Source: Straminergon stramineum (taxonomy: Eukaryota; Streptophyta; Bryopsida; Hypnales; Calliergonaceae). Taken from it: a stretch of 64,000 nucleotides of DNA. Positions 4,991 to 59,276 of this stretch are shown here, one piece after another (the first letter of the stretch is position 1; each line of letters starts with the position of its first letter). The DNA lies in NCBI GenBank assembly GCA_963920665.1, contig OY987264.1, forward strand, positions 23,044,906 through 23,108,905, read 5' to 3'. The translations under genes were made by a program, and so were the position numbers. The notes below the pieces were generated by a model. The model saw only the letters and a program-made list of their open reading frames with translations, did not search any database and had not been told where the DNA came from.

Positions 4991-5019
4991 AGATTGTATG
5001 TGCTAAAAACAAAGAGCAG

Positions 5020-25924: not shown

Positions 25925-25928
25925 TTAA

Positions 25929-34532: not shown

Positions 34533-34759
34533 CCCCTAAACGACGCGGCAGACGTTTTTTGTCCGATGAACGTCAAGTTCTGTAGGACAGAATTGCAACT
34601 ATTTATTTTCAGAATTAGGGGTAGAATTAGGGGTGGAAAGGGGAGATCTTCTGTAATAGTTTGACTCCCAATGAGTATTTTTAATTTTTTTTTAAGTGGA
34701 TGATGTCACACAGTTTCAAAATGGTTGATTTTCACAGTCACCAACCACGCATTAAAGGG
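34533..34759. mobile_element. TTAA-type element, family D, 227 bp (copy 2)
   Basis: The left end CCCCTAAACGACGCGG follows GTAA (one mismatch from TTAA). The right end TTAAAGGG is followed by TTAA (34760-34763). The interior shares the GGGGAGATCTTCT and GATGATGTCACA blocks with the copy at 56095-56317. The left 45 bases also match the complement of the right end of the element at 37435-37804 (GACGTTTTTTGTCCGATGAA). A short GGAC tandem array lies just outside the left end. No coding capacity. Confidence 0.8.
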
Positions 34760-35354
34760 TTAATTTAGTCACTGCTGGAATTGGATGGAGGTGGGGCCCA
34801 AGCATTCATGCAAGACATTAAATCCTCCATTCGAACTCAATCTTGTAGGGTAATTTTGTGGGTTATCTGGGGATAAAAGTTAAAAATATCCCCTATTTTG
34901 AACTGTATTGAGGGTATGTTCTAGACCTCCACAAGCCAATTTGGGGTCTCTAATTACAAATATGAATTCAGAATTTGCCAAAAAAAATAATGTGAAAAAA
35001 TTAAAAAATTCCTGCATTTTTCCCAAGGTAAATCTGCCTCTACAGGGCTTAGTTTGAATGGAAGACTTAACATCCTCCAGCATCCATTGTGTGTAACAGT
35101 GAACTAGAAGTTTATGGGGTGACTTAGCTTTTGGCCCTTCTTTTCACATGTCATGAGGCGGTTCTGTTCCCATTATCATTTGGTTGTTGCCTAAGCTTAG
35201 TCATTTAATTCAGTTAAACAACACCTAATATTTGTTTGGCATTATGGTCATTCTCCTTCAGTTTATAAAAGCAATTAGTGGAAAAAATTGACAAATAAAA
35301 TAGCAACTCAGTTCAAATACTTTGTACTCAGTTGAAGGCAATTCATCAAATTAA

Positions 35355-35749
35355 CCCATTAAGGTCTCTTTGAAATTGACAATTTTTCATTGGTAGTTAG
35401 AATTTTAGAATGAATTTGAGGTTGAATTGAAGAGGATGGGTGTGGGGAATTTGTAAATGAATGTATAGGGACAAAGGTCTGGAAATTTTGTGTTGGCATG
35501 TGGTTTAGGGGTTGTAAAACAGACAAAATACCAACTGAAAATATGCAAATCAATGCTCGAATCTAAATAATTGGGAACTATCAATTGTCCAAAAATGTGT
35601 TGCAAAGCTCTAAGCATTCATATGCTTCTTTCAATCAAGATAATTAGATCTTCCAAATTCATCTTAGTTTGGTATTTTTTTTATCATGTTCAGCCTAGGA
35701 CTAGAAAATGTCTTATTTGCCTCGAGAATCGACCATGGTCCTTAATGGG
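35355..35749. mobile_element. TTAA-flanked element, family F, 395 bp
   Basis: The ends are CCCATTAAGG and its complement CCTTAATGGG, a perfect 10-bp pair, placed directly between TTAA copies at 35351-35354 and 35750-35753. The right subterminal part holds a GACCATGGTC palindrome. There is no coding capacity. Confidence 0.85.
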
Positions 35750-35753
35750 TTAA

Positions 35754-37430
35754 GGCAATTTGCACACTATCATATTTGACTAGCATGTTTGGCTTAAATT
35801 AATTAAAAAATGCTAAATTTTCTTGCTAATTGTGGGACCAGAAAAATTAATCTACCTATAAATGTAAAGATGATTTGTTGAAAATTCAAAGAATGCAACA
35901 ACAATCCATTGAGTCAAATACCAATCTACCATCAAGAAATTTTTTGATGGAAAAATGAAGGAATTTGTTCATTGACATTTAATGAAAATGAAGAGGGAAG
36001 ACGTTGTTTTTTTCTAAATAAAATCCATTGTTGATCATGAATCCTTAAATAATAAGGGACTAGTTGAAGATGAAAGTTTGCCAGCTCATTTTTAACAATG
36101 TAGGAATTGCATTCAAAGGAGATCTTTAGACCTCATTTGAACATAGTAGAATAACTTTTTCCAAGAACCTTTGATCTATGAAAAATTGGGAAATCAAACT
36201 AAGTTTTATCTATAACAAACCTATTTGTGATTTTGAGGCTCCACAAAAAAGTCATGGATAAAAGTCAAAGCTCTAGGATGTTTGAAAATGTTAAAGAAAA
36301 TGTCCCTTCCAACCCTTTTCAAAACTTTGTCTATAACTTTTGATTGAAGGCTTGAAATCTCAAATCGTTTTTGGGAAATGAAAGTCATCTTGATTTTCTA
36401 CATTAACTTACTTAGATCTAAGTTTTTCAAAAAAATTAATTTCACTATGCCTAAATGAAGTCTAAAATTATACTTTGAACACAATTCTTGCTTTTGACTT
36501 AACTATGAACAATTCATCTTCTACCAATCCTAATTTGCATATCCCACATGCGTTGTTTTGCCTCCTATCACCCCACTTGTATAAACAGCTTATCCCTTCA
36601 TGTGAAGACATTCACAAGTAATTGCTTTTGAAGCTATTGTAGACAATTGCTAGATATTTTTGTATTTCTTGAATTCAATGTTGAATTTTGAATACAAGAA
36701 CCAATTCTAATTGGCTATACCCTTGGGCTACTCAACTAATAATTGACGAGAGCTCACATGGGGCAATTAATATATGCTTGTTCTTTATGGAGAAAGGATG
36801 AAAAATTGTTGTTTCTTCTTCATAAGCCGTTCATCTCCTATATTCCTAGTTTTTGTTTGATTATACAACCTAATATATTGAAATTAAGATGGTAATTTCT
36901 AAATTTTCATCGAACTAATTTTCTACTAGCTACTAAATCTCCCCATTCATGGGTATGTGACCTTTATTATAGTAGAACTGCCCATTACCAACCACTTAAA
37001 CATTTTGTGCATGATCTGAAGTAATGTAAGCAATGCAAATTTTCTACCATGTAGAACAATAGAAATCATGGGTGTTGTCAAACTTTCATAATTTTTTTTT
37101 CTTAAATTGAAATTGTTATGAATTTCAGAAGTCTAAAGTTGACCTGCACCCATCTCCAACATGTAGAGTTTTTCATAACTGCTCATGCAAAGACTAATTT
37201 GGCTTTCAAAACCAAGCACATGTGTTCTTGACTTTGATGGCTAAAAGATGGTCAGTAACCAAGAAACTAATGGTTAAAAATCAATCATATCTCTTTTGAA
37301 TTTCCTAATACCTATATATTGGCCATGGGACTTGGTTGGTAATGGGTGGTTCTACCACACCGTATTTTGTACAGGAAATATTGCTGATGGAGTGTTCCCA
37401 ATTCTTATCAAATTACTGCACGTAAATTAT
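35754..37430. other. AT-rich intergenic DNA, no gene seen
   Basis: Only short open frames are present. No domain motif, inverted-repeat pair or tandem array was recognised. Confidence 0.5.
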
Positions 37431-37434
37431 TTAA

Positions 37435-37804
37435 CCCCTAAACGATAGACTGGTCCCCACAAGGAAAAGGTGGGCTGAGTATTGTTCATTGTGCACTGAC
37501 CGTGGGAGAGAAACACGTTCATGAACAGTACCAAAGAAAGGGGAACTCTCGTTGCCCTCATGGAAATTGTAGGAGGGCAATCTATGACCTAACACCATGC
37601 ACGGGTATTCCTGTGTTCTGTCCTCCATGTCTATGCTCCCTAAAATTATGAATGCATCCAAATGACAGTATTTTTGGCCTTGCAAGATGTAGCACGTCTC
37701 CACAATTGTGTTAAAAAAATGGATGAAAAAATGCATTCCTACTTCCTACAAATTACTTTCTTGTTATTCATCGGATGAAAAACGTCCGCATCGGCGTTTG
37801 TGGG
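37435..37804. mobile_element. TTAA-flanked element, family E, 370 bp
   Basis: The left end CCCCTAAACG and the right end CGTTTGTGGG form imperfect inverted repeats. They lie exactly between TTAA copies at 37431-37434 and 37805-37808. The right subterminal block (GGATGAAAAACGTCCGC) is shared, inverted, with the left end of family D. The interior is GC-richer than the flanks but carries no recognisable protein. Confidence 0.85.
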
Positions 37805-38254
37805 TTAACTTAGTACAGTACATGAGGGCTACAGTACTCCATTGAACTCCACTTCAAACCACCTTCTGAAGGGTACATCTTTAGAAGGTGTTTAGTTACT
37901 GCAGAAGTAGAAGCGGAAGCAATTTGACTCCAATTCTGCAAACGCTTGTACACGGTACTCTTTTTCATTCACATTATTAATAGTATGACTTTTTCAACAC
38001 ATGGATTGAAACACTTTTACAACATTCATGCTCAAGTTGCTTGCTAAGTTAGTGGCTCTTGTTGACTTCGTAGTGGAGGCGAGTCCATTCATTCTTTCAT
38101 TTACACCTAACAGTTAAGCCCTTCGGAAATGATGTAAATAAATAAAACTTTGACAGGTCTATTTGAGATGCAATCGAAGGATCTTATACTGAACTCAGGT
38201 GGGTGAGTTGTGAGAAATTTTCATGAATAATGAACTCATGGATTCAATGATTAA

Positions 38255-38473
38255 GGTAAGAGCACCCAATGGTGTCCTTGTACCCAATTGTGTCAGATTC
38301 TACATAGCATAATCATTTCAGGTTGTAAATGTAAGTAGCCAGTACATATAGCTTATTTTTTTGACCTAAAATGATAAGAGGTCTACAGTCTAGTTACATT
38401 TATGTTCTAGAATGAATTCCTGACGTAAAATCTGACGCAATTGGATATAGGGATGCCATTGGGTGCTCTTACC
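38255..38473. mobile_element. MITE, 219 bp, about 45-bp terminal inverted repeats, TTAA flanks
   Basis: The left end GGTAAGAGCACCCAATGG and the right end CCATTGGGTGCTCTTACC are perfectly complementary for 18 bases, and pairing continues to an AATTG.GTCAGATT block. The element lies exactly between TTAA copies at 38251-38254 and 38474-38477. The terminal sequence differs from the CCC-type elements, so it is either a different TTAA-targeting family or a Harbinger-type MITE whose TAA/TTA duplication happens to give TTAA on both sides. Confidence 0.88.
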
Positions 38474-38477
38474 TTAA

Positions 38478-41400
38478 ATATAGCATTTAAAGTAGAAATC
38501 CAGATTTTTTCAGATTTTTTCTCTAACTATAGTAAGGTGAGTACACCCCAAAGTGCCACTAATTGGTACTGTGTCTAGTTACTATTATTAGGCTATTCAA
38601 AATTTCATATTGTCTTGTTGACAAGTAAAAGGTTCCAAGGCACCAAAGAACTTGCCATTAGGATACAGTTTGCAAAAGTTATGGAGGGTCAAAGGTTGTT
38701 TCTAAAAACTTTTCTTCCATATAGGTACATAATTGATTTTGGAGATGTACATAGTCTGAAGATGACGATTTAAGATCAAGTGCCATTTTGAAAGTGCCTA
38801 CCATAGACTTTGACATTCAACATATAATGATGCAAGAGAGCTAAAAATTGAGAAACTGTGTTCAAGTGAAATGTGATTGAGTCCCCCTCCAAATGACATG
38901 GGTGTTTTTCAATTTTAGAGATGTCAGAAGCTACCAATTTGGGGGGGATTGACCATAAGTGAAAATGAGTTTTTTTTCTAACTTCATGCTTATAAAAGAG
39001 TAGTACACAAATTATTTATGAAAATATGTGGATTCCAAGATTATAATGTTTAAAGTTGAAAAAAAACTTGTTCACAATATAGTATACTAGGGTTAGTAGA
39101 ATTCAAGCCCTCTTGGAGTGAGATTTTAGCCTCCATATCATTAAGTACTATGCTTTGTTAGGTACTGACATGCAAAATTTTAGAAGTAAATAAGGGATCC
39201 ATCATACTCTAAATCTCCTTGGACACAAGATGGTGAGAGAGGAGGTCACCTAAATTAGCAATAGCCTAGCCAAATTTTGATGATTTCTTCTATAGTGAAG
39301 AATTTTTTTTTGAAATCCGAATAGTATAAATATACAATAGATCCAAACATATAGAATATGTGGGAAAAAATTTCAAAACTTTGACTATGCAAATTGCAAG
39401 ATTGAATTGTTTGCAATTTGAAAAACATCATTATTTTTTCAAACTTGCCCATCTAGGGTAGCAAAAATTTTGATTGCTCTAGGAGTGAGATTTTTGTATT
39501 CTTGACGATTGCATACTATATAATATGAGGTACACACATGCCAAAATTTAGAAGTATAAAAGGGATTTAGCAAAAGATGTCCAAACTTCCCAATATTTTC
39601 CTATCAACATTATTTTTTATCTAAAAATAAAATAAAATATATATAGAGTTTGCCAAAGCTTATTTTTTTTAAAATAAATGAAAATTTGGTAGGGAGGTGT
39701 TGACCTATTTTCTTCACTTTTGGTAGTTGAAAGGATCCATAGTAAATGCTTTATGGGTATATATAGATCTAATCAATTAGAATCTAGGTTAAATAAAAAT
39801 AAAAAAATAATTTGATATCTAGTTTTGGTCTTCAAATACAAAAAAACTTGTAATAAATTCACCAACACCAAGATGCCCCAAAAACCAAAGACCCACTTTG
39901 GACTTCAAGGGTTGATGATTTCCTAATCATGTATTTTGTGTTAAATAACAATTGGAGGAGTCATGGATATGCATTTCCACATTTTCTCTCTAGAAAAACA
40001 AGAAATGTAGCCTCCACATATTCTTAATTTCCATATTCAATAAATCAATTAAAATCCAATTTTGTAAACATTGAAGACAAAAAGGAAACACAATAATTTT
40101 GCTTTGGAACTAAATACAAAAGAACTTGTCACCTAGTTCTTTATTCTTGTCCTAAGAATTATAAAAGTTGAAGAAAATAAGGTAAATTTAATATTGACCT
40201 TTTTGTTAAAATCAAGAAGCAATCTTTCTATATTCATACCAAAAATGTACAATGTTTGAACATTGGATCTCAAGGTTGATTTTGAACATGCTATTCATAA
40301 GCACCTAAATTTTTGTCACTTAATTTCCAAAATATAAATGCAAAGATGTATATAGATGTATATTTCAAATGCCACCAAGCCCCATGAAAAGCCAAGAAGA
40401 TTTAATAAGAATAAATATGAATCTATAAACAATGACTTGTGTTGATGCTTTTAGAAGTATATTTTGTAAGAATTTTTTTTTAAATCCAATAGATTCATTG
40501 AAATATCTAGTGTTGTTAATTAATGATGGTAATAGAATTTGAATAAAATTTTGGTCCACTTTGCATAGTTAAATGGACTTGAAAAATAGATCATGTTAAG
40601 GCCTACATTTTAAAGTGGCCTTAACCCCTCAAGGATTAAGAGATCACAATGTATCCTTTTAAAATTTTCAATGACAAATTATAAGTAGGGTGAAACAAAT
40701 CTCAACTTTTTGTAAAGTAGGATCTTGTAGAGTAACTAGTTGACATACTTGATGCATTTTCCAATTTTCAAAATTTAAATGTGAGAATTATATAAAAATT
40801 TCCTTAGGAAATGTTGTCTAATAAAACTGCAAGAAAAACTAATTTTTTTCCAATGAAAAGAATAGTAGGGATGGAATAGAACATTTTCTTGGACATTTTT
40901 GGTCTTGATCCTATACAAACAAATTGGGTATGAAGAATTTATTTTCAAAGTTTTAGCAATTGTAAAAATACAAGGCTCAATTTGGTTAAGTGAAGAACAC
41001 AAAATAATCAGAATGATTCCAATTTTTTTGAAGATGTTCCAAATAACATACTAATAATATCAATTATCAAATTTCAAAATTGATGCATATATAAAAAGTT
41101 AAATTTTGTTAGGATCCAATTTGATCAATTTAGGCTTTTTACTCTTTCTCCTTAAAAATGTGTATAAATTTGAGATATTTATGTTCTTTTCTTTAAAATT
41201 AAAAGATATTTTCCATGTGGGGTAGCTTCATGAAATTTTTCAATACTTCATTCTCACTTATCTTCAAGCCAGAGGTAACTTATCCTTCTTCTCTTCAAAT
41301 CATGCAAAGAAAATCCCAAACTTCCAAATGTACACAATGTGCTTGTAAAGCAACAAGCAGATACATCTTGAAAATTACAAAACAAAGGCTAAATATGGAA

Positions 41401-41520
41401 TTGTCACAACATTAAAAATACAGATAAATATGGATAAGAGAGAGCACCAAGATGGCAATCACTTACAATCCAATGAAGCACTGTCAATATTTCAATATTC
41501 ACCCATCTTTTTGGCCCAAC
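38478..41520. other. AT-rich intergenic DNA, no gene seen
   Basis: Three kilobases without a supportable gene. A TTAA followed by CCCCTCAAGG at 40621-40634 and a CAAGGG followed by TTGA at 39906-39915 look like isolated termini of TTAA-type elements, but they do not pair. Confidence 0.5.
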
Positions 41521-41649
41521 AAATGCTATATTGTTCTAATCATGCCGATTTTTTCATCCAAAATTGACAACTTCATTCATATTATAAACAAAAATGTACA
41601 AATTTTGACAAAAAAGGACTAATTTTATTTGGTGAAAGTTGGTAGAAAA

Positions 41650-42200
41650 TCTATGCCTCAAGGTAGGTTGTTTGTTTGTTTGATACACTGAGATATAAGA
41701 AATCATAGAGTGTTTGGCGGCGCTCTTGATACCACTCAAAAGCTCTTGGCAAGGAGGGGTGCCTGGACTTTCAAAGTGTGAAAGTGTTGAATTTCAAATT
41801 TTTCTATGAATCGAAAAATGAAATGAAATTACATTTAATTTTGAAAAATCCATAACGCCACAAAACAAAAGCCCTTGCATTCCTTTGTACATAGAGTTTT
41901 CTCTTCATGCCAATTTTGTGGTGTTTGGACCTACATTGTGAAAGGTATGGATTTTAAAAATTAAACAATTAAATTAAATTGTCTTCTATTTTGGAAAATC
42001 ATAAATTTTACATCACATATCCAAATGCTACAAAACAAAGACCTTGCACTCTTTTATGCCTAGAGCTTTTTATTCCTACCACAAGCGCAACCTCTCACAC
42101 CGCAACAAAGCCCTTGCACTCCTTGGTGCATAAAAAATATTCAATTTTGGAGTTTTTTAAAATGAAAAATGAAAAATGAAAAAATGATTTTTACTTTTAT
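41650..42200 (+). repeat. Dispersed repeat R1, copy 2
   Basis: It shares with 4590-4990 (inverted) the segments GTTTGTTTGTTTGATACACT, a CACAAAACAAA.CCTTGCA block and CACATATCCAAATGC. Within this copy the CCTTGCA(C/T)TCCTT motif occurs three times (about 41873, 42043, 42113), which suggests internal tandem structure. No coding capacity. Confidence 0.65.
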
Positions 42201-42234
42201 TTTAACTATGGCAACGACATAGGGCATACTAGTT

Positions 42235-42480
42235 TATATCTTAAATTAGGTTGTTTGTTTTGTTTGTTATGGTGAGATCTCTTGGACCGTGTGTCCCTAA
42301 ATTGGGTTCTTCGTACCGTCAGAAAGCCCTTAGCTAAAGGAGGGGTGCATGGGCTATGTTTCATGGTGTTTTGACTCACGATAGAAAATATATTGAATCT
42401 CGAAGTTTTTATGAATTGATAAATTAGAAGATTCCTTGTACTTTCATTTTGGCTGTAGCAACGGCACATGGCAGACTACT
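42235..42480 (+). repeat. Dispersed repeat R1, partial copy 3
   Basis: It starts with a GTTGTTTGTTTTGTTTGTTA segment, then GAGATCTCTTGGACC, and continues with a GCCCTTAGCTAAAGGAGGGGTGCATGG segment like that near 41740. It directly follows copy 2 in the same orientation, so a local tandem duplication is likely. Confidence 0.55.
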
Positions 42481-43100
42481 TTATTTTGAAACCATCGTGC
42501 AATTTAACCCCGTTGGAGAGGAAAAAAAGACAGTGTTGCCGTCATGCATTTCAATGTTGACTGAACCCCAGTAACGTATACTTGGGACTTTCACTCGATG
42601 TAAGCTTACTGTACCAAGCGACCTTCCACACTCTAGTCGGCATTCGGCAAGAGGTCCATCTACAAGAAATATACTGGATATGGGCGACAGATGATCCCTA
42701 CCTTGACATTCGAGTTGAAAATGTTTGCGATTTGGAAATGAGACAGCTGCTTCCGTCGTTTGAATCATTGATGTTGGGTCCAAGTCGTCACACGCAACAA
42801 TAATGTCGTGGCGAAATTCCTGTGCAGATGGAGGCTATTCCTGCCAGAAATTCGGTCACTTCTCCTCAAAACCGGTACTACTAGGGCTCAGATGTTACCT
42901 CCGTCTAAGATAAAACATCCGCAAAGTTTCAAAGGACAAGATGAAATTTCAGGAATTCTCGGTTGCCCCACACCGACAGTTCCACGAGGCCTCGTGGAAG
43001 AAATCACTGAACCTTGGAAGAAGAACTGAAGGAGAACTGGATCCGGCAGTTCGTGACACCATACGCGGATTTGTTGGTTTTCTTTGAGCATCTGGACGTT
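42481..43100 (-). other. Possible coding relic, family not recognised
   Basis: The block is GC-richer than its surroundings and open over long stretches on both strands. On the minus strand 42783-42481 gives 100 codons with beta-strand-like text (IFLVDGPLAECRLECG, VKVPSIRYWGSVNIEM), preceded by another open stretch (43091-42888, GTVGVGQPRIPEISSCPLKL). The pieces are in different frames with stops between them. I recognise no domain. It could be an exon or a decayed gene. Confidence 0.3.
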
Positions 43101-44873: not shown

Positions 44874-44875
44874 TA

Positions 44876-44905
44876 CTCCCTCCATCCCAAATTGATATTC
44901 TTATT
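44876..44905 (+). mobile_element. Stowaway-like terminus (single end)
   Basis: CTCCCTCCATCCCAAATTG directly follows TA (44874-44875). This is the usual start of Stowaway MITEs of the Tc1/mariner superfamily. No complementary right end was found within several hundred bases, so the copy is truncated or the match is chance. Confidence 0.4.
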
Positions 44906-47719
44906 TAACAAAAAGATCCGGATTAAGGCTAAAAATAACATTTTAAAGACCCATTTCATGCTATAAGTAGAGTTTGGTGCACTCCTAGCATCCTAGAAAA
45001 TTTGAGTTTCAGAGCCCTTTTCAAAGTATAGTTTTGGAGTATTGAAAAGTGAAAGTTTGGGGGCATTTTCAAAGAGCACCAATGGGCATTTAATTGTTGA
45101 GTGTGAGGTTGTCATTTTATGGGCATTTTAGCTCCATAAGGTTTCAATACTCCAAAACCCATTGCTTTTCATTCCTTGAAATAGCAACTAAACGTTAGGT
45201 GAGTGAAAAAGTCACAAACGACATAAGGTAGGGTTGACTTGGCTACTAACACTAAATCATTTTAAGTAAAAAGTGACATTGGTCTGGATCTCTGGAATGA
45301 AAAACAATGGGGTTTGTTGTAGTGCTTACTTGACAAAGTTGAAATTAGTGAAGTAGTCTAGAAGAACAAGATTTTTGAATCATAGATAATTGTGAATTTC
45401 TTTGAATTGGGGAGATTCTAACGTCAAAAAGTGTAACATACATCATGGCATTTTTTAGATCCAAATCCAAACACCTTTGGGGAATCAAAGCTAGAATCAG
45501 AATAATGGATCATGCTTTTTACAATGAATCAAGACATGTCAAACCCTAAGGTTGAATTTACACCAAAAACAAGAGGGCCAAAAAATTATGAAGTCTCCCT
45601 CTCCAAGCCTCTCATTTGCCATAGTTGAGAATTACTCCTTTGGATTGGTGTAAACCACTAAGAAGGTATGATATTGCAAAAATAAAAATAAGAATAAAAA
45701 TAGCCTTCTTTTTTATAGCAAGGACCCTTGCAGGCTTTCAATTTGACATACTTCCATGAGGTGAATTTGACTATAATTTTGTGTCTCAAAAGTTGAGGAA
45801 TTTTTTGCCACATAGGAAAAAAGTGCATTCCACATCATTGAATCTTCCTGGAGATCTTTGACCTCTCATTTCATGTTGTAAATCCATTTTTCAAGAACTT
45901 CTTTAGTTTATTGTAGCCAATCAGCGCCTATTTTTTTCCCTCACCTTTGGATCTAGTATGAACTAAGCCCAAGTACAACACTAAACTAAAGTTTGTAATT
46001 GTTTCTATTGACTTCACTATGGCCCTTTGGTGAATTCCTTCACATTGTCTCTCTTGTATGTGAGTGTGCATTGCTATTCTATTCTTCCTATGCTAAGCAA
46101 TGTAGCCAAAATGAACTTGATGTCAAGAAAAGTGATGTGTTATGGTCCCTTGTACATTTCAAAATCAATGATGAAAAGTTTTCAAATCTACTAAATAAAC
46201 AACTTCTCAATTGAGAATGTTAACTTTTTATTTTAAAAAAATAGAATAGCCTTTCATTTCTATACAACAACAAAGAATACAACAGAAAATTGGGGAACTA
46301 ATTGGGGATCTAAGGAATTGGAGGAAGTTTGGATGGAAGAAAAGTGCTAATTTCTACCAAGGTAAGTGATTGCCATCGAAACAAAAGGCATTTGGACATA
46401 CCAAATTGAAGAGAATTCCTCACTAATCTCAACTACCTATGCTTGTCACTATGATTATCATAGAACTTAAGAAGAAAGTTCTTCCTAGCCATTCTTGCAT
46501 GGATAGTGTGTTGCCAAACCAAGTGGCAAATTTGAAGAACATAGATGACCTTAGAATGTGGCCTTTTACATCAATTCATAATGAAAATTAGGTACCTACA
46601 AAATTCATTTGGTTTTACAACTAGAAGAAAGGAGAATCAAAGTTGCTAATCATGCCATGGTTCAATTTTGAAAGTAGGGGCATTTGACCGACATTTTACA
46701 AGAGAGGCCTATAGCAGACCCAACTTCTCTACTACATTAACCTCTAAAGTCTCATTGCCCCTTTGATAAACGAAATGGATTTTCGGTAGGCTTGTATAGT
46801 CTCAAATTTTGTCATGATATTTTGAAACTTTTTTCAAGATAGAAAAATGTATTAGCCTTTTGGAAATATAATTTTTATTTCAATTTGTGTGTAGAAGCAA
46901 AAGTTATGCCATCCTAAGGAAAATTTTTAACTTGTCAAACAACAACAGAAATCCACAAAAAATTGAAATAGAAAATATATTCTTTTATTTCTCATAGACT
47001 ATATTTTGTCTATGTGGAGAGCTTTGATTCATTCCATTTGGAATAGTTCACTTTTAGAGTTTTCTAAATAGACATTCCATCCCTTGAACTACTTAGAATA
47101 GAGCACATCTCTAGAGAAGAACTTTGCATATGTTTGTGACATTGATAATAATTTAGGGGCATGGTCCTAGTTTGGAAGTCCCGAGCGATTCAAACCTGCA
47201 ATAGGCTAGGGTCTCTCCTGCAATTAGGGGACTTCTTGCAGACTTCAAATTTTTTTTGGAAGTCCATAGGACTTCTAAGAAAATTTGAAGTCTAATTAGA
47301 GCCAATTCTACTGTGAAGCTCCCTTTTGTTTTGCAGTTTTTTGGAGCACTTTTAGCAAAATTTTTTTTGTAGTTTTTTTTGTAGGCTTAACAGAGGCCCA
47401 ACTTTAACTCACATGGGTTGATTTTTCAGGGATTATTGCCACTGTAGAGAGTTCTGTGCATTTTCAGGCCAAAAGAAGACGTTTCGCAGTTGTTCCCTGT
47501 TTTGGAAACCAGACACAATTTTGTTGAATATTTAAATACTGAAAATATTAATAAATTTTAAATTTTAAAATCTTTAAATTTTTTTAAAACATTATTAAAA
47601 TATCAATTAAAAAAATATTGTTTGACGTGGCCAAACACCAGCCATGTTAGATTGTTGATGTGGTACAATTCCCAAAGTTCTCCAAAGTCCCGAAACTCGA
47701 GGGACTCACCTCAATTTCA
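44906..47719. other. AT-rich intergenic DNA, no gene seen
   Basis: Short open frames only. A CCTCTAAAGTCTC string directly after TTAA (46731-46734) looks like the left end of a TTAA-type element. It is followed at about 47020 by a CTTTGATTCATTCCATTT segment related to family A, so a strongly decayed copy may lie here. Confidence 0.45.
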
Positions 47720-47722
47720 TCT

Positions 47723-50155: not shown

Positions 50156-50842
50156 AATCAACAATGGAAACCTAATTATTTATTGTCAAGTCTCTACTTG
50201 TTTGAAGTCTCACTAATACGATTTTAGTTACCTACTACCTGATTTTTCTCAAGGGGCTATTATTTGAATTGCTAGGATCCCACACACTAAGATTGTGCCA
50301 ATTTTGAAAATTTGTTGTATAATTTCCATGGAATTTCTTTCTTAATCATGATTTTCCATCACTCATTAACTTTTTTGTCTTTTAGCTTGCTTTCAATGAA
50401 TTTTACTTCAATTGTCCAATTTTCAAATCCAATTTTTGTTGTGTCTATCAAAAGAGTTTTTTGATGAGCTTCCAATGATAATTCTGATTTTACACCAATA
50501 AAAAATAAGAATATTTTAATGAGTCATTTAGAGTGTTGCATTGATGGTGCCCTTACCTTGAATCCAACACTAACAAAGCTTAAAAGTTTGGTGTTCTTTG
50601 GCACTGGAGCGGGTCCTCTTATTAGCCAGGTCATGAAGAAAGCCATGAAGAATCGAGGGTGACGATTCAATTCATTCGCGTAACGAGAATATGAGCTTTG
50701 GTAACTTTCATTCATCCATGATCACGGATCTACTAGGGCAAGGAGCCGCAGTCATTCTTTCCTCTTTCAAGCTTGCCAGCCTCACGCCGGAGCTGTGCTC
50801 GCCCCTCCGCCGTGCTGATCGCTCTACTCGTCGCCAGCAACC
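50156..50842 (+). promoter_or_regulatory. Upstream region and 5' leader of RPS4
   Basis: From about 50640 the sequence becomes GC-richer. A pyrimidine tract (CATTCTTTCCTCTTTC, about 50752-50767) lies about 75 bases before the start codon, as is common at ribosomal-protein transcription starts. The exact start site and any TATA element cannot be determined. Confidence 0.4.
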
Positions 50843-52845
50843 ATGGTGAGCTCGCCCGTCTTCTACAGATTCGTCACTACACTAAGTTTTTTTCAGCGTT
50901 TTTTCCAGCGTGTTTGGAAACTCTTGGTCTGTCTTTTGGTCACGGGACGTTTTTAGGGTTTGAATAGCTTGGGGCGTATTCGTGCGTGTTTTGTGAGTGA
51001 AAGACGATGCCTCTGCTTCTACTTGCATTGCGCGCAAGCCGTTCCTTCACAGATGGACAGTTTGGCGATTTGAACGTGCGAGTGTTTCGGCCCTCAGCGT
51101 TGCTCTTTTTGGTCCTTGACAGGCTCGCGGTTTGAAGAAGCATTTGAAGAGGCTCAATGCTCCCAGGCATTGGATGCTTGACAAGTTGGGCGGTGCCTTT
51201 GTAAGTTTGCCTTCTGACCTAATTTTTAGGTTTTATTTTCTACCAGAAGTCTAGGGTTTTATAAGTAACGTAACCGAAATGATCAAATATTTTAGAATGA
51301 TACTTACTTTACTCTCTTCCCTGGTACTTTCGAGAACTCTCGCTTGTCAATCTTCTTGCCCGTGGATTTCTTTGTAGTGAACAGTTCACGTGTTGATATT
51401 CCGATATGCAGTTTAGGGTTTTCTAGTGCGACTTCTTCACTAACTAAATTTTTAAGTGTCATTCGATTAGTCTATCAAAATTTAAAGCTTTGGACTACGA
51501 CTTAGTATTTGTTATGTCTATTTGATTTCAGGCCCCCAAGCCATCTCCAGGACCCCACAAGGAGAGGGAATGCTTGCCCTTGGTGGTGATGTTGAGGAAC
51601 AGGCTGAAATATGCGTTGACTTACCGTGAAGTGGTTGCAATTGTCATGCAACGCCTTATTTCCATCGATGGAAAGGTCCGCACTGATAAGTGCTACCCTG
51701 CCGGGTTTATGGGTAAGTTTGTTTTTCCGTCCTTTCTGCGTTTGCTTCCGTGGGCTGTTTTCTCTTCTCATCAATAATTTAGGGTTTGGCATTGTCGGTA
51801 ATTATTCACTTAGTATAGGGGTTCTATCTCAGTGTAGTGTTGGATGAATCGTTGATGAGATTTCTTCTCTTATTCATATTATCTCTGTATTCCTACCAAA
51901 TCTTTCTGATCGTCTCGTTTCTTTTGACCAGATGTGATATCTATTGCGAAGACAAACGAGAACTTCCGTTTGTTGTACGACAACAAAGGTCGCTTTACCC
52001 TACACCACATCAGCGCTGAGGAGGCTAAGGTATGTACTTTATTGAGGCTCTTAATGCATCCAATTTGAGTAAATTTTAGTCCTCGAGACCATCGTCGCTT
52101 TGTCAGGGCTCTTTTTGGATTTGGCATTCTGGTGTTGTAAATCTTTCTTTGCCACGGGTTATGGTTTTAGCAAAATTCCAGTTTGCAATTATAAGCCTAT
52201 TTCATCTGAATCTCGGGTTTTAAGTTAGTGAGTTCTAAATTGTAATTTTAGGAATCGCTTCAATCATCTAAATGTATATTCGATTCTTGCAGTACAAGTT
52301 GTGCAAGGTCAGGGCCGCTCAATTTGGAGACAAGGGCGTCCCACACATCACCACTTTCGATGGTCGCACCATTAGGTTTGGACATCGTTAACTTTACGCT
52401 CTTTTGACCTGCATGTGCTGTTTGATGTTCTTCAGTGGACTTCTTTCTGAAGTTCTTTATTTGATAACTTTTTTGACGTAAATCTCTGATTGACAGGTAC
52501 CCAGACCCCCTTATCAAGGCCAACGACACCATCAAGATCAACCTGGAGACCGGAAAGGTGGTGGAGTTCATCAAGTTCGACATTGGCAACATCGTCATGG
52601 TGACCGGTGGTCGTAACAGAGGGCGCATTGGTGTGATTCAGCATCGTGAGAAGCACAAAGGCAGCTTCGACATCATCCATGTGACCGATGCTACCGGGCA
52701 GCAGTTTGCCACTCGTATGGGGAACGTGTTCACTGTGGGACAGGGTGCCAAACCCTGGGTCACCTTGCCTCGCGGCAAGGGTATCAAGCTCTCCATTGTT
52801 GAGGAGGCGAAGAAACGTACCCAGGCCCTCAAGGCTGCCGCCTAG
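50843..52845 (+). CDS. 40S ribosomal protein S4 (eS4), 263 aa, six exons
   Basis: Exons are 50843-50845, 51123-51200, 51532-51712, 51932-52029, 52293-52375 and 52497-52845; every junction has GT donor and AG acceptor bases and the frame is kept. The first coding exon is the ATG alone, and translation continues [20 protein letters not shown]. Domains in order: RS4 N-terminal segment (about residues 3-39), S4 RNA-binding fold (about 42-105, with [17 protein letters not shown] and [17 protein letters not shown]), the central eS4 domain ([20 protein letters not shown]) and a KOW motif ([20 protein letters not shown]). The length is typical of plants. The product is part of the small subunit near its rRNA-binding body. 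Four telo-box motifs (TAGGGTTT) lie in the introns at 50954, 51252, 51414 and 51780. The gene looks fully functional. Confidence 0.97.
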
Positions 52846-53182
52846 ATGTAGTAGTGTGGGGCTTTTCTGCGGTTCTAGTGTTTCCATTTATGGCGCAGGC
52901 CTTGTGTATGATCATTGGAAAGAAAGTCACATTTCTCATTCGCGTGTAGACGTTGTGTTTTTACACTCAAGCTGACCAGCCGAGCCATGTGTTTCAGAGT
53001 TCTTTGGGTACCTGGATTGCTGTCATGATCACCTGCACGGGTAGTGAATCACGAAAGGTCTCTTGTAGTCACCCTGCGCATGAATGTCTCCTATTCCCAC
53101 TATTCTTCCATGTATTGTTTTCTACGCAATTTTGTGATCCATTTTCCATCTTCTAATTGCTGGATCTTGTACGTAACTTCAA
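52846..53182 (+). other. 3' flank of RPS4
   Basis: This holds the 3' untranslated region of RPS4. The open frames here on both strands have no motif. It ends at the first TTAA-type element of the following cluster. Confidence 0.5.
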
Positions 53183-53631
53183 CCCCTAGATGCCCAAATG
53201 CCGAAGGCCTGTTTCTAGCTTCTTGGAATTTGCTTTAAATTCGACAAAAAGGCAGCATTTTGATGATTTTAATCAGTTTATTTGGAATTGCAACAGTACA
53301 AATTCGAATTAGACAAGTTACACATGGGACAAAAAAAGAGGACAATATTATTTATAGGTTGAAAGATTATAATGCTTGATCATATAGGTGTTAAAACTGT
53401 GAAAGTGATATGAAGTCTTTTGATCACATGTTTTTTCACATGTCAAACGTTATCCCCTCAAAGCTGGAGGTCTTTTTGAGTTCAAAAAGATCATTGCTTT
53501 TGAAGCGTTATGAATCTAAATTTTACCAGGTTATAGAGATCTCAACTGTACAATCTTATAGTGTACATGTTGCAAATGATGTGAATCAAATTTGGAGTGA
53601 TTTGACTACATAAATTGCATGACTATAATTT
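53183..53631 (-). mobile_element. TTAA-type element, family B, diverged or truncated copy
   Basis: It starts CCCCTAGATGCCCAAATGCC after TCAA and matches the left 240 bases of the complete family B element at 58238-58875 (GCTTCTTG.AATTTGCT, GAAAGATTATAATG.TTGATCAT). Beyond about 53440 the match fades, and no right terminus can be assigned before the next copy begins. Confidence 0.6.
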
Positions 53632-53635
53632 AAAA

Positions 53636-54272
53636 CCCCTAAATGCCCAAGGCACCAGATTTCGGTGTTTTGAAAACTTTGAAGTTAAGTAGAACTCAAC
53701 CAAATTGCTATTATTATTAGTTTATATTTTTGAAAAACTCTTTTTGAAGTCCAGTTTTAGGATCAAAAAGCTGATCTTAAAAATGAAGGATCACAATTTT
53801 TCTATTCAAGATTTTGTGCAAGGATGCCCATTGCAATCTTGACTTCTCATAGTGTTGAGGGCTCTTGGAAATGAGCCTCAAATACACTAGATCTTGGAGG
53901 AAAAATCACTCTAGAAATTCATTTAAAAAAATTATAGAATAGATTTTGAAAAACCATAAATTGATTGAGGTTGTACATGCTAGGCCTTGTAACCTCATAT
54001 TTTTTTAGTGACCAACTTTTTAGAGTTAACATGCAAACATAGAATTGAAAAATTTTCATATTTTTAACACCCTCATGATCAAACATTATAATTTTTCAAT
54101 CTATAAGTGATATTGTTATGTTTTCTTTTCCTATGTGATCTCTAACATGTCTAGTTTGAATTTGTATGGTTACAATACAAAAGAAATTGGTACAACTTAT
54201 GAAAATATTGACTTTTTGTTCAATTTAGAGCAAATTTCAAGAAGCTTCTAATAGGCCTTGGGCATTTAGGGG
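53636..54272 (+). mobile_element. TTAA-type element, family B, 637 bp (copy 2)
   Basis: The ends CCCCTAAATGCCCAAGGC and GCCTTGGGCATTTAGGGG are 18-base perfect inverted repeats. TTAA follows on the right (54273-54276); on the left the flank has become AAAA. It is the reverse complement of the copy at 58238-58875 over its full length. No protein is encoded. Confidence 0.88.
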
Positions 54273-54567
54273 TTAAGTGTTGGAAAAGGATGCGGAAATT
54301 TTCCTAGAAACACATTTGGAGGTGAAATTTGATTTCTAAACCTACTCAAATGAAAAAACTTTAAACTACAAAGTGATTCAAAATCAGCATTCAAACACAT
54401 TGGTGAAAGAAAATATCATTCAATTGATTCATTGTGCTTGCAAAATGGCTTTGAAATGTCAAAAAATAGCAAGAAAAGTTGGAAAAAAATACATGTAAGG
54501 TTAAACCTCCTTCTTCTAAGATAATTCTCATTCACTCATATCTTCTTGGATTGATATGGAATTTTAA

Positions 54568-55378
54568 CCCCTAACTGCCCAAGCGACCATATATGGTCGA
54601 TTTGAAATTTTAGGCTCTTTTAGGGATGGGCAGTTAAATTCCTGTGACCAGTTAAAAAAATTTTAGGGGCAGTTTCAAGGATTAACTACTAAAATTTTTT
54701 ATTTTTCACGGAAAAAGGTAAATATTTGATTTTTGAGAGGTCCTCAAAGGCATATATTTATCATAGAGGAAAAATAAAGCTTGCAAATTTTACTTGATTT
54801 CTTAGCTTTGAGCAAAGCTTGCCAATTTCACTTATTTTAGATCTAAAAAATTTTACTTATACATTTGTTTTGAAAATGGTCCTAGTGGAAGGAGTAAAGT
54901 GTTTTTATGATTTTCACCATTGAAAATTTTTACATGCAAATCTTGATTTAGAGTTAATTGCGATTTCTATTTATAAAAAGAATTGCATTTCAACAATTAC
55001 AAGGTGGATTGTATTATGAGTTTGATAACTCTTCATTCAAACTTAAGGTTTTTGGAAGTGCATTTTAGAGTGCTGACACAATTTTTAGTTTGTCTTGTCA
55101 CCTTCAATCCCAAAATATTCTTATATACAAATTTCTGAAACATTGTGGAGAGGGGTAGTATACTAAAAATAGGAAGTATACAATTCTCTTGTTATAATCT
55201 CACAACTTCTATGCAATTCTGCACTCAAAATTGGTATGCATACTAATAAGCAAGTTCTTTAGACATCCATATGATTAGATTTTGAAAAAAAACATTTTTT
55301 TTTCACTTGGGATAACTATAAGTCTGTGCTCTTTTTTCATTGTCAAAACACAGTTGGAAAGGCTTGGATATTTAGGGA
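54568..55378. mobile_element. TTAA-flanked element, family H, 811 bp (ends tentative)
   Basis: The left end CCCCTAACTGCCCAAGCGACC follows TTAA (54564-54567). The right end GGCTTGGATATTTAGGGA precedes TTAA (55379-55382). The last 290 bases match 59545-59821. A GGGCAG followed by TTAA near 54640 could instead be the right end of a mini-element of about 75 bp sharing the same left end. A perfect palindrome CGACCATATATGGTCG lies near the left end. Confidence 0.55.
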
Positions 55379-55382
55379 TTAA

Positions 55383-55954
55383 ACACACAAATTAGACTAG
55401 TATGTGCAACTTTTCCAGAAAAAATCATTAGAAATGGACACTATATGAAGAAGAAAAAAGTCACTGATGTTCATTCTAAAACAAAAATGTTTGGATTTGG
55501 GTTTGGATTTTGAACTTTGAATTGCTCCCACACATTCAAAACAACTTGGATTGACATACATTTTTTACCACGGTAACTAGATTTCAAGGAAAAAAGAACA
55601 CAACAAGTTTTATTGAAAACTAACATTTTATGAAGGAGATTCAAGCCCCCAAAGTTTCAGCCATTAAATGCATTTTGGTGATCTCAAATTCAACCTATGC
55701 ACTTTGATTGGCTTCCGAAGACTTAGTACCTCTTCGATTATTCTGAACATATTACCACAAAAACTAGAAGAGAGCGCACATTTTCCAACAATTTTTATTG
55801 AATTTAGACATCGGATGCTAAAGTTACGACACTTTGAATTGGACTTGAAACTATGTGCATCACAAAGTTTTGAACTTGCGGTTTGTCAACAATTACCATG
55901 TGGTTATTGTTGTTTCATGGGTTTGCACGTTAATATACAATTGAGTGCATCATT
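55383..55954. other. Intergenic DNA, no gene called
   Basis: A 96-codon plus-strand open frame (55668-55958) is the longest here. It has no recognisable motif, and its composition suits chance. Confidence 0.4.
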
Positions 55955-56049
55955 ATGATGCATTACTTTACAATTTATCGCATTATTGCAATGCACCATT
56001 GTAGGTAATGCATTGTAATAGTGCGATAACTTGTAAAGTAATGCATCAT
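55955..56049. mobile_element. Palindromic fold-back repeat, 95 bp
   Basis: ATGATGCATTACTTTACAA on the left and its complement on the right enclose further pairing around TATCGCA(T/C)TATT. The whole segment could form a long hairpin. It is probably a fold-back MITE. No target duplication is clear. Confidence 0.75.
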
Positions 56050-56094
56050 TCATTTGAATGACTTGTTTCAGGGCTCTAGAATAGTGATGTTTAA

Positions 56095-56317
56095 CCCATA
56101 AACATCAACATGGACATTTAGTGTTTGATGGATGATAGAGTATCTTTCTATGATTGATAGAAATGCAAATATTCATCCTTGGAATTTTTGTGTGGAAAGG
56201 AGAGATCTTCTATAGTAGTATGACCTCCAATGTGCATTTTTTATTTTTTTAAAGTAGATGATGTCACATGGTTCTGAAAGGGATGATTTCCATGGATAGT
56301 AGTGTGTCCTTTAAAGA
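56095..56317. mobile_element. TTAA-flanked element, family D, 223 bp (copy 1)
   Basis: The left end CCCATAAACATC follows TTAA (56091-56094). The right end TCCTTTAAAGA precedes TTAA (56318-56321). The interior matches the family D copy at 34533-34759 (GGAAAGG.GAGATCTTCT, GATGATGTCACA). The TTAA on its right is also the left flank of the family A element that follows immediately. Confidence 0.8.
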
Positions 56318-56321
56318 TTAA

Positions 56322-57972
56322 CCCCTAAAGTTCCATGACTATGTTTTCACCAAAATTGCTCCAAAACTGCCATTTTTCGTACAAGTACTAAAGTTTTGAA
56401 AAAAATAATTTTTTGACACATGTAACCATAGGATCTTGTAGTATACTAGTTTGAAAAGACGTGAAAAAAAATCCAAAAATTTTCACCATGTGGATGGCAA
56501 GATATAAGCATGCAAATTCATTGAAATCATTTTTTGGGCCTTGTGGAAAATAGGGTAGCTGCACTTCATAAGCTCACTTTTCTAAGAAAAAATGTCTGAA
56601 ATGGTGGTGCATCTTTGGATTCTTTTTCCTAGACAAGTTGTCCACATGCTTGAAAAATTTCAAATCATTTGGAATTGTACAACATATAGGAAAAAATAGT
56701 AAGTAGGCAATAGTAGAGAATGATTCAAAATACTAAATTGTTAAGAACTTAATTGGATGATTGCAAGAAACACTTGTCCTATTTGTTGAGTTTTCAATAG
56801 TACTCATGATTTTTTCGGGAGTACTTTAAAATTAGAAAAATAATTTTTAAATTTCTTAAAAACATGAATAATGTATATACCTTTAAGATGAAGGTACCCG
56901 TGGATGGAATTACATAGAAAAATTCTCTAAGTAGGAGAACTAGAAAAGTGCCAAATCTTAAGAAAATACATACCTTGATGTTTTAATTAGGAAAAAATAG
57001 TAAAAATTAAAAAATACACAAAATAAAAATTGGCCATTTGTAACAACTTTATGGAGGTGGCCATTCACCATAAGAAACACCAAAATAATATTTTATATGT
57101 TTCAAAATGCAAGCAAAAAGAAGCTCACTTTGTAGACTTCCACACCACATAAAATTACTTATTTTAAAAATTCATTTGGACATTAGCTATAAGTCTACTA
57201 GAAGACCATCTCCTCAAAATTTCAGCTCAAAATTCCTTTATTTGGGTTCTAAATAGTACTAAAAACCTCCACATTGGCAAGTGTGACATTAAATTGGGCT
57301 CTATTTTTGGATAGTATATTATTTTTGAAAATTATTAAAAAATTAGGCAAGTTCTATAATAGTCATGAGTACCTTTCTTGTAAATCTTAAATCATTTGGA
57401 GTCAAAACACAAAAGTTATGGCCAAAAATCATATCAATATGCAATATGTGACGCAAAATAGGACATGTGTTTCTTGCAATCACCCAATTATGAAATTGAA
57501 AAATGCCAATCCCAATGGTTGCAATGTTTTAATAAACAATCTACATCCAATGATTTAAAAAAAAAATTTTAAATTGATTAAGATAAAGGATTTTAAAGTT
57601 TATTTTAGTGTAGGGAATCCATAACTACCCACAAACAAAAAATCCTCATAACTTTTGACTCATTGATCAAAATGGAATGATTCAAAGCTTTCCACATATA
57701 TATAACTTTAGAAAACCAATTTCAAATTCTTGTTTATGAAAAAAGTGATTTTTTCTAATTTGCCTGGACTACCCATTTACAAAAGAAAGTAACATATTAG
57801 GCCATAACTTTTGACTCATATTTTCAAATGTCATAAAATTTAGTGCAGGAGAAAGATATTCTTCATCCCCACCTTCTCTTAAAATTTGGGCAAAAAATAT
57901 AGAATTCTCCAATGACATGTACCTGCCCAAAATTTCTATGTAGCCAAAAAATACATGTTGGTACTTTATGGG
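56322..57972 (+). mobile_element. TTAA-flanked element, family A, 1651 bp with a nested insertion
   Basis: The left end CCCCTAAAGTTCC and the complement of the right end, CCCATAAAGTACC, form imperfect inverted repeats. They lie between TTAA at 56318-56321 and 57973-57976. Without the nested 731-bp element the unit would be about 920 bp, matching the inverted copy at 25929-26850. A third, truncated copy is at 19030-19519. No transposase is encoded, so the family is non-autonomous. Confidence 0.88.
56755..57485. mobile_element. Nested 731-bp element with AATT target duplication
   Basis: The ends GG(A/G)TGATTGCAAGAAACAC form inverted repeats of about 30 bases, continuing as (A/T)TGTCCTATTT. AATT occurs directly on both sides (56751-56754 and 57486-57489). 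The uninterrupted family A copy at 25929-26850 has a single AATT at the same place, which supports a 4-bp duplication. No coding capacity. The superfamily is not assigned. Confidence 0.88.
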
Positions 57973-58237
57973 TTAAGGGACCAGATGTCAAATATATTGG
58001 ACTTGTTTAGATTTGAGGTTTTAGCTTTTTGTCTAGAACCGTGTTTCTTTTCACTGGAATCTGCATGCCAACCATCTAACAAATTCGAGGTTGTTCATAG
58101 AACTTGTAGCTTGTGTACCTTCATTGCTCAAGTAACTATTTTAGGGTCCTAATGAAGTCCCTAGAAATGAGGCCACATTTTTTGGACTTAAGGTTTTAGT
58201 TGGTTACTAGGTTGTATGGTTTTATTAGAGTTGTTAA

Positions 58238-58875
58238 CCCCTAAATGCCCAAGGCATGTTTGGAGCTTCTTGAAATTTGCTCTAAATTGAACTAAAGTCA
58301 ACATTTTCATAAGTTGCACTAATTTTTTTTGAATTGTAACCATACAAATTCAAACTAGACATGTTAGGGATCACATAGGAAAAGAAAACATAACAATATC
58401 ACTTACAGATTGAAAGATTATAATGTTTGATCATGAGGGTGTAAAAACTTTGAAAAAAAATTTCAATTCATTTTTTGCATGTCAACTCTAAAAAGTTGGT
58501 CACTAAAAGAATATGAGGTTATAGGACCTATCATGCACAACCCCAATCAATTTATGGTTATTCAAAATCTTTTCTATGATTTTTTAAAATGAATTTCTAA
58601 TGTGATTTTGCCTCTAAGATGTAGTGTATTTGAGGCTCATTTCCAAGAGCTTGCAACACTACGGGAAGTCAAGATTGCACTGGATATTCTTGCACAAAAT
58701 CTTCAATAGAAAAATCATAATCCTTCATTTTTAAGATCAGCTTTTTGATCCTAAAACTAGACTTCAAAAAGAATTCTCCAGAAATATAAACCACTAATAA
58801 TAGCAATTTGGTCAGGTTTTACTTAACTTCAAAGTTTTCCAAACACCACATTTGGATGCCTTGGGCATTTAGGGG
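58238..58875 (-). mobile_element. TTAA-flanked element, family B, 638 bp (copy 1)
   Basis: The ends CCCCTAAATGCCCAAGGCAT and the exact complement form perfect 20-base inverted repeats directly between TTAA copies at 58234-58237 and 58876-58879. It is nearly the same length as the inverted copy at 53636-54272. No coding capacity. Its good ends suggest it is one of the younger copies here. Confidence 0.93.
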
Positions 58876-59205
58876 TTAAATATGACTCGTATCATCTTTG
58901 CGGACTACGGTCTTGGTTTATACTAGGGCTTGTCCATGCATGCTCAAAAGATGTTGCTCATAGATGGTACATCTTCTTGTTTGGGGATGGGCAGGTGCGG
59001 ATCAAGTCGATCTTGATTGATTATGTATGTCAACCCTGGATTTGGTGGAGAGAGCTTCATTGAAATGCAAGTCAAGAAAATCGCCGATCTTAGGAGAATG
59101 TGTGCGGAGAAGGTGAGTATTTCCTAACCTTCCTGTTGGAAGTAGATTTATTTCTTCTCTATGACAAAATGAATATTGTATTATGTATCGCTAGTTGCAC
59201 ATTAA

Positions 59206-59276
59206 CTCCTAAAGGACCGAGGGTGCAAAAAATAGTGTTGTAGAAGCCACATGGTGGCCTTATGGTCCTTTAAGGG
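59206..59276. mobile_element. TTAA-flanked mini-element, family G, 71 bp
   Basis: The ends CTCCTAAAGGACC and the complement of GGTCCTTTAAGGG pair over 13 bases. The element lies between TTAA copies at 59202-59205 and 59277-59280. Its terminus is close to those of family A and the 33586 end. It lies inside an intron of the RPE pseudogene. Confidence 0.85.

What the first reader, a model, noticed from the sequence alone, without database searches (positions are those of the whole stretch)
34533..59276. Several families of non-autonomous elements bounded by CCC(C/A)TAAA ends and TTAA: a piggyBac-like (or Kolobok-like) population in a plant
Seen: elements of 1651, 638, 637, 395, 370, 227, 223 and 71 bp whose inverted ends begin CCCCTAAA, CCCATAAA, CCCATTAAGG or CTCCTAAAGG, and which sit directly between TTAA tetranucleotides (35355-35749, 37435-37804, 56095-56317, 56322-57972, 58238-58875 and 59206-59276 on both sides; others on one side). 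Known: TTAA target duplications mark piggyBac and Kolobok, and piggyBac ends usually begin CCC. Inference: one transposase source has mobilised unrelated interiors that share only the termini. To my knowledge such elements are poorly documented in plants, and the autonomous partner is not in this window.
Basis: partly seen in the sequence, partly recalled or inferred. Interest (0 to 1): 0.85.

Follow-up and report, generated by a model that had tools for sequence, protein, structure and literature searches.

The report
Many piggyBac transposons in probable moss
The window, probably from a moss, holds about a dozen short mobile DNA elements that insert at the sequence TTAA, and the same genome contains matching piggyBac transposase genes and many thousands of such element ends, so a transposon family best known from animals has flourished in a plant.

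Summary
Confirmed and extended. All eight reported elements exist where stated; 14 of their 16 flanking tetramers are TTAA, and the most over-represented 10-mers of the window are pieces of TTAACCCCTAAA. I add one complete element (54568-55378, 811 bp), some diverged or truncated copies and several single ends. The window's own genome is held (326 Mb; host probably a moss). It has 118 matches to the piggyBac transposase family PF13843 (0 of 14 control genomes) and 22,935 exact TTAACCCCTAAA against 147 for the reversed control. A candidate autonomous partner exists: a 6,284-bp element between TTAAs, ends CCCCTAAAGTTCC/CCCCTAAAGGACCA, with a 906-codon open frame and the DDD residues of piggyBac; the 1651-bp window element shares its outer 381 and 200 bp. 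Homologous empty sites carry one TTAA or a near variant. So piggyBac, not Kolobok. "One transposase source" is too simple: the eight transposases examined fall in four places of one well-supported group whose other members are unnamed environmental proteins. New member of a known kind, notable for host, scale and apparently recent activity. My searches showed no report of natural piggyBac elements in mosses.

The parts
34533..34759 (.). E4, 227-bp non-autonomous element; GTAA left, TTAA right
   Evidence: 68% identical to E8; five full-length hits in fetched loci, two of them (L022, L023) the same place
35355..35749 (.). E5, 395-bp element, 10-bp perfect inverted ends CCCATTAAGG, TTAA both sides
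   Evidence: no copy among the loci held
37435..37804 (.). E6, 370-bp element, TTAA both sides; right end shares 45 bp with left end of E4
   Evidence: one partial match elsewhere, seen in two overlapping loci
53636..54272 (.). E7, 637-bp element, AAAA left, TTAA right; 89.8% identical to E10 in opposite orientation
   Evidence: homologous uninterrupted region in L071, tetramer there diverged
54568..55378 (.).
   Evidence: empty site with one TTAA in L071 and one TTAG in L014; second right end at 59821
56095..56317 (.). E8, 223-bp element; its right TTAA is also the left TTAA of E9
56322..57972 (.). E9, 1651-bp element, TTAA both sides; outer parts related to the autonomous 6,284-bp element, its middle of about 1.07 kb not matched to it
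   Evidence: first 381 bp 66% and last about 200 bp 76% identical to the L070 element
58238..58875 (.). E10, 638-bp element, 20-bp perfect inverted ends, TTAA both sides; high-copy family
   Evidence: 40 scored copies (itself included) of 3,380 candidates, all about full length; 25 of 25 with both ends located have TTAA both sides
59206..59276 (.). E11, 71-bp element, TTAA both sides
   Evidence: no copy among the loci held
25929..26848 (.). E2, about 920-bp relative of E9; the 25929 end is intact beside TTAA, the last ~8 bases of the other end are diverged (end approximate)
   Evidence: L015, L017 and L032 match it over 1-906 at 73-74% and have TTAA both sides
19007..19519 (.). E1, truncated relative of E9/E2; right end intact beside TTAA (left limit approximate)
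33586..34150 (+). E3, left end and adjoining part of a further element; right end not found, so the end given is only how far a copy matches
   Evidence: 64% match to 46741-46929 starting exactly at TTAA; 73% to L052 over 1-565
46741..47047 (+). E12, left end and adjoining part; right end not found
   Evidence: L031 and others over 1-307
53183..53404 (+). E13, left part of an older copy of the E10 family, flank TCAA
   Evidence: 77% to E10; flank
59558..59821 (.). right part of a second E14-family copy, flank GTAA

Best explanation
These are non-autonomous piggyBac transposons of a plant, probably a moss. piggyBac-type DDD transposases encoded elsewhere in the same genome recognise ends that begin CCCCTAAAGGACCA or variants, cut the element out and paste it into TTAA, which is thereby duplicated. 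Shown here: matching ends, TTAA on both sides of many independent copies, single TTAA or near-variant tetramers at homologous empty sites, elements with transposase frames on the same large contigs, and window elements that share the outer parts of one of them. Inferred: that these transposases move the short families in trans, the chemistry (as known for the cabbage-looper enzyme), and recent activity.
For: Ends and flanks. Independent insertions: E7 and E10 are 89.8% identical inside, 15 of 56 and 17 of 56 bases outside; 25 of 25 E10-family copies with both ends located have TTAA on both sides and different outer flanks. Scale: 11,474 + 11,461 exact TTAACCCCTAAA against 57 + 90 for the reversed control. 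Empty sites: E14 against L071 (TTAA) and L014 (TTAG), L047 against L065 (TTAA), L067 against L038 (TTAA). Shared tetramer: E8-TTAA-E9, and an E4-type copy-TTAA-E10-type copy in L040, so TTAA is not owned by the element. Transposase: 118 PF13843 matches on contigs C1-C11; L070 element 6,284 bp and L073 element 6,037 bp between TTAAs with CCCCTAAAG-type ends; the L070 protein matches solved piggyBat and T. ni piggyBac, with Asp at the three positions of the triad (D268/D346/D447 recalled, positions counted by hand on the printed alignment).
Against: Of seven transposase loci fetched at 9 kb, both ends were found in three (L070, L072, L073); L069 has one end (the other lay outside my stretch), L071 and L075 only a candidate left end, L074 none that is clear. 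E5 and E11 have no copy, and E6 only one partial match, in the loci held; genome searches for E6 and E9 did not complete. E9's middle does not match the autonomous element. Empty sites at L066, L052 and L047/L048 have tetramers one base off TTAA; at E7 and L046 the tetramer is too diverged. TTAA is a palindrome, so sequence alone cannot exclude a TA duplication with TTAA preference; the transposase evidence does that indirectly.
Confidence: 0.95

Rival explanations
1. Kolobok-type elements, which also duplicate TTAA.
For: Same target tetramer (PMC9587614 passages).
Against: Kolobok ends are 5'-RR...YY-3'; here 5'-CC...GG-3'. Elements with these ends encode PF13843 transposase. No Kolobok transposase was searched for in the genome.
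Confidence: 0.02
2. Tc1/mariner-type elements with a TA duplication (element A-CCC...GGG-T), or PIF/Harbinger elements with TTA/TAA, that happen to sit in TTAA.
For: The palindrome T-TA-A makes the products look the same; E4 has GTAA on one side.
Against: The outermost T is kept in 14 of 16 ends of the window's eight reported elements (P about 6e-6 at background) and on both sides of 25 of 25 E10 copies; GTAA, TCAA and TTAG are also listed among variant duplications of animal piggyBac (PMC10813416 passages).
Confidence: 0.02
3. Interstitial telomere units (CCCTAAA) inserted at repaired breaks.
For: The end resembles the plant telomere unit; CCCTAAACCC occurs once in the window.
Against: CCCTAAACCCTAAA occurs nowhere in the window; elements are two-ended, recur at fixed family sizes and are flanked by TTAA.
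Confidence: 0.005
4. A single transposase family mobilised all of them.
For: Window ends share 7 to 13 of the first 14 bases with the right end of the L070 element; two transposase lineages carry the same CCCCTAAAGGACCA end.
Against: The eight transposases examined fall in four places of the tree. L072 has CCCCTCAACGCCC ends; E10 ends match its left end and the L070 right end equally (12 of 14 each).
Confidence: 0.2

Closest known systems
piggyBac superfamily (PF13843 DDE_Tnp_1_7; T. ni piggyBac 6x67, bat piggyBat 9c0f)
   Same: TTAA target duplication, CCC ends, DDD transposase with the three Asp aligned, PF13843 match at E 2.3e-78.
   Different: Host is a plant, probably a moss. The transposases form a separate group (100/100) with only unnamed environmental proteins; the first named relative is a beetle protein at 32% identity. 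L070 element 6.3 kb, L073 6.0 kb, L072 5.1 kb.
piggyBac MITEs reported for angiosperms
   Same: Short elements grouped by ends and duplications; a review lists PiggyBac among seven angiosperm MITE superfamilies (PMC10004981 passage).
   Different: Here the transposase is found in the same genome; whether it was in those cases I did not see.
PiggyBac repeats in the fern Ceratopteris
   Same: PiggyBac label in a seedless plant: 1,230 repeats (PMC6890710 table passage).
   Different: What I saw there is a repeat-annotation count of 122 kb in all.
Kolobok superfamily
   Same: TTAA duplication.
   Different: Ends and transposase differ.

Membership tests
piggyBac | TTAA target-site duplication | tested here: met
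piggyBac | 5'-CC...GG-3' ends, mostly CCC | tested here: met
   (in the window E8R, E11L, E12L and E14R depart by one or two bases); definition from passages of PMC10045372 and PMC10813416
piggyBac | PF13843 transposase in elements with these ends | tested here: met
   L070, L072, L073 of seven loci fetched
piggyBac | DDD catalytic triad | tested here: met
   alignment of the L070 protein to 6x67; residue numbers recalled and counted by hand; other copies not checked
piggyBac | seamless excision | not testable with these tools
   needs an assay; homologous empty sites show pre-insertion, not excision
Kolobok | 5'-RR...YY-3' ends | tested here: not met
Tc1/mariner or PIF/Harbinger | TA or TTA/TAA duplication with free outer bases | tested here: not met
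   outer T kept in 14 of 16 window ends and on both sides of 25 of 25 copies; palindrome leaves a formal ambiguity
MITE / non-autonomous derivative | no transposase inside, ends shared with an autonomous element | tested here: met
   longest open stretch 103 aa in the seven elements measured; E9 outer parts against L070; no Pfam match for one E6 and one E9 frame

The most novel reading that the evidence does not exclude
Mosses carry their own old, diverse group of piggyBac transposases, separate from the animal and fungal ones, of which at least one lineage moved very recently (four near-identical transposase copies, three of them without an internal stop in the domain) and which has seeded more than ten thousand element copies or remnants in one plant genome.
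Probability: 0.5. Interest if true: 0.75.

Novelty: new member of a known kind. Interest (0 to 1): 0.66.

Why it matters
[quoted passage not shown] Here an exact 12-base end occurs once per about 14 kb of a 326-Mb plant genome, with candidate autonomous partners and nearly identical transposase copies. It would give plant biology a native piggyBac system and make testable how the superfamily came to land plants. It also suggests that users of piggyBac as a marker-excision tool in plants check for related endogenous transposases.

Tried and rejected
Kolobok, mariner/Harbinger and telomere readings were rejected as listed under rivals. Exact scans for TTAACCCCTAAATGCCCAAGGC in prokaryote and viral contigs found nothing. 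The Rfam scan of the window found nothing at gathering score. Pfam scans of window frames found no transposase: 10 chosen frames of the 231 stop-to-stop frames of 60 aa or more, and four larger reading frames. Literature: ten searches, several of which listed only part of the papers found (one search listed 25 of 1,871, 30 of 288). Among the papers I opened, the one on a moss genome used only the word piggybacking (PMC10619864). Two papers sought by DOI were not held, so 'no report found' rests on listings and passages of open-licence texts only. A homology search with a window F-box-like protein gave only two unnamed hits and did not sharpen the host. I considered typing a known piggyBac transposase as a query and did not.
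Full report
What is in the window. The reported elements are real and exactly placed. Of the 16 tetramers beside the eight two-ended elements, 14 are TTAA, one GTAA, one AAAA. Aligning 22 ends (these 16 and six further ends; one of the six, E13, was set off by one base in that table) gives TTAA|CCCCTAAAGGACCA, with 0.24 bit or less at the flank positions beyond TTAA. A count of all 10-mers in the 64 kb puts TAACCCCTAA (10 seen, 0.1 expected), AACCCCTAAA (11, 0.21) and TAGGGGTTAA (9, 0.1) on top. A matrix of the ends, scored with each element left out, gives 12.4 to 23.5 bits for the 16 ends; at scores above 12 there are 28 sites against a mean of 2.55 (most 8) in 20 simulated sequences. Against this, a blind scan for any 4-mer with inverted ends directly inside gave TTAA 7 pairs but AATT 7 and TTTT 6 as well, and only three of the seven TTAA pairs are CCC elements; an earlier version ranked TTAA fourth with 12, behind TTTT, AAAA and AATT. 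That test alone does not single out TTAA; the other tetramers' pairs were not examined one by one.

Elements as insertions. E7 and E10 are 570 of 635 bases identical inside, while outside TTAA only 15 of 56 and 17 of 56 bases agree. Self-comparison of the window shows relatives of E9 at 25924-26840 and 19007-19524; at the intact end of each the match stops at TTAA, the other end of each is diverged or lost. E8 and E9 share one TTAA between them, and in L040 an E4-type copy and an E10-type copy do the same: two elements, three tetramers, so TTAA is not part of the element.

The genome. After many unanswered requests, the genome search placed the window at G000:C2:23044906-23108905 in a 326,016,511-base assembly of 59 contigs. 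TTAACCCCTAAA occurs 11,474 + 11,461 times, against 57 + 90 for the same letters read backwards. E10 as query had 3,380 first-look candidates, of which 40 were scored, all covering position 1 or 2 to 638, at 92-94% apart from itself. Of the 30 loci returned for it, a strict pattern found both ends in 25 (one of them E10 itself); all 25 have TTAA on both sides with different outer flanks; in the other five the strict pattern missed the left end. For the first 30 loci of the end pattern (all near the start of contig C1), a partner end with 12 or more of 20 matching bases was found within 1.5 kb in 15; 11 of these 15 partners have TTAA, four do not; 10 of the 15 sizes fall at 635-638 (seven) or 905-926 bp (three). 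Six elements of 905-946 bp picked from that listing have TTAA on both sides (three of the six were below the 12-of-20 cut).

Empty sites. Joining the flanks of 40 copies and comparing them with all sequence held gave homologous uninterrupted sites. At E14/L071, L047/L065 and L067/L038 the empty site has exactly one TTAA; E14/L014 has TTAG, L047/L048 GTAA, L066/L014 and L066/L032 TTGA, L052/L060 and L052/window TCAA; the L046 (two pairings) and E7 sites are too diverged at the tetramer. Eleven pairings were inspected; many weaker spanning hits were not, and some hits there are an element's own locus. These are homologous repeats, not alleles.

The autonomous partner. PF13843 has 118 matches on contigs C1-C11 and none in 14 control genomes; 116 of 473 candidates were scored, so the count is a lower bound, though at least two pairs of matches are halves of one gene; by my count of the table 14 of the 118 have no stop inside. 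The nearest lies about 260 kb beyond the window's right end (C2:23368882-23370249). L070 holds a 6,284-bp element (2158-8441) between TTAAs with ends CCCCTAAAGTTCCT and CCCCTAAAGGACCA and a 906-codon open frame; L069 holds a second copy 95% identical over the stretch fetched. The protein from its first Met (798 aa) matches PF13843 at 2.3e-78, piggyBat 9c0f at 1.2e-24 and T. ni piggyBac 6x67 at 7.7e-21; Asp is aligned to D268, D346 and D447 of the latter (numbering of the triad recalled). E9 aligns to its first 381 bp (66%) and last 200 bp (76%); the middle of E9, about 1.07 kb, has no match to it. E2 aligns to both outer parts (64% and 72%), E1 only to the right part (63%). L073 holds a 6,037-bp element with identical 14-bp ends CCCCTAAAGGACCA and a transposase of another lineage that carries a stop. 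L072 holds a 5,117-bp element with ends CCCCTCAACGCCCA/CCCCTCAACGCCCC. Ends were not found on both sides in L069 (cut by my stretch), L071, L074 and L075.

Relationships. In a tree of 90 rows (eight own, 82 of the 88 hits long enough), the eight own sequences and 37 unnamed hits form one group with 100/100 support on a stem of 0.63; the own sequences need at least four changes of label and sit in four places; L002, L003, L005 and L006 are almost identical (branches 0.0084 or less). The tree is midpoint-rooted and sampled around one query, so it does not tell horizontal from vertical origin, and that the unnamed proteins are from mosses is a guess.

Host. The tetraspanin of the window has unnamed hits up to 94%. 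By score the best named hits are Ceratodon purpureus (255 bits, 69%), Sphagnum (247, 66%) and Physcomitrium (240, 63%), then the lycophyte Diphasiastrum (224, 61%) and seed plants (217 or less); over shorter stretches single seed plants reach 68%. A moss is therefore probable, not proved; the species is unknown.

Literature. Passages read: piggyBac is said to occur in animals, fungi, protists and occasionally plants such as red algae (PMC12732532); PiggyBac is among the MITE superfamilies listed for angiosperms (PMC10004981); 1,230 PiggyBac repeats are tabulated in the C-fern (PMC6890710); T. ni piggyBac had yet to be tested in Physcomitrella in 2017 (PMC5505980). No paper on natural piggyBac elements in mosses appeared in the listings, in an open-licence library only.

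Mechanism and limits. Shown: ends, target, empty sites, transposases in elements with matching ends, window elements sharing the outer parts of one. Inferred: mobilisation in trans, hairpin and seamless chemistry, and recent activity (from near-identity of transposase copies).

Noticed in passing
window 38255-38473: 219-bp fold-back element with 14-bp perfect ends GGTAAGAGCACCCA between TTAAs; its 5'-GG ends differ from the piggyBac set (Kolobok-like, or TA/TTA-type). No copy in the loci held.
   Followed up: partly
window 2861-3840, 6145-7878, 12376-14073, 62870-63496: Four diverged copies of one gene family; one (6145-7878) is weakly like KIB1-4 propeller proteins, below the curated cut-off. 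For 12376-14073 only two homologues (58% and 39%, both unnamed) were found among 6,828 candidates.
   Followed up: partly
window 52477-52842: Exon of a 40S ribosomal protein S4 gene; the old element copy E13 starts about 340 bp after its stop.
   Followed up: no
window 59206-59276: A complete element of only 71 bp, perhaps near the shortest that two transposase-bound ends could allow; may be an internal deletion after insertion.
   Followed up: no
window 18695-18859, 20169-20419, 25541-25775, 36057-36530, 55955-56049: Further fold-back repeats, probably other MITE families; the flanks printed at the match limits show no TTAA pair.
   Followed up: no
window 26241, 36333, 38673, 46898, 57410, 57648, 57804: ATAACTTTTG occurs 7 times against 0.5 expected, in both orientations, some inside E2, E12 and E9.
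   Followed up: no
L027 2301-2545: A copy of the E14 family carries a nested insertion of about 235 bp with inverted ends that do not begin CCC.
   Followed up: partly
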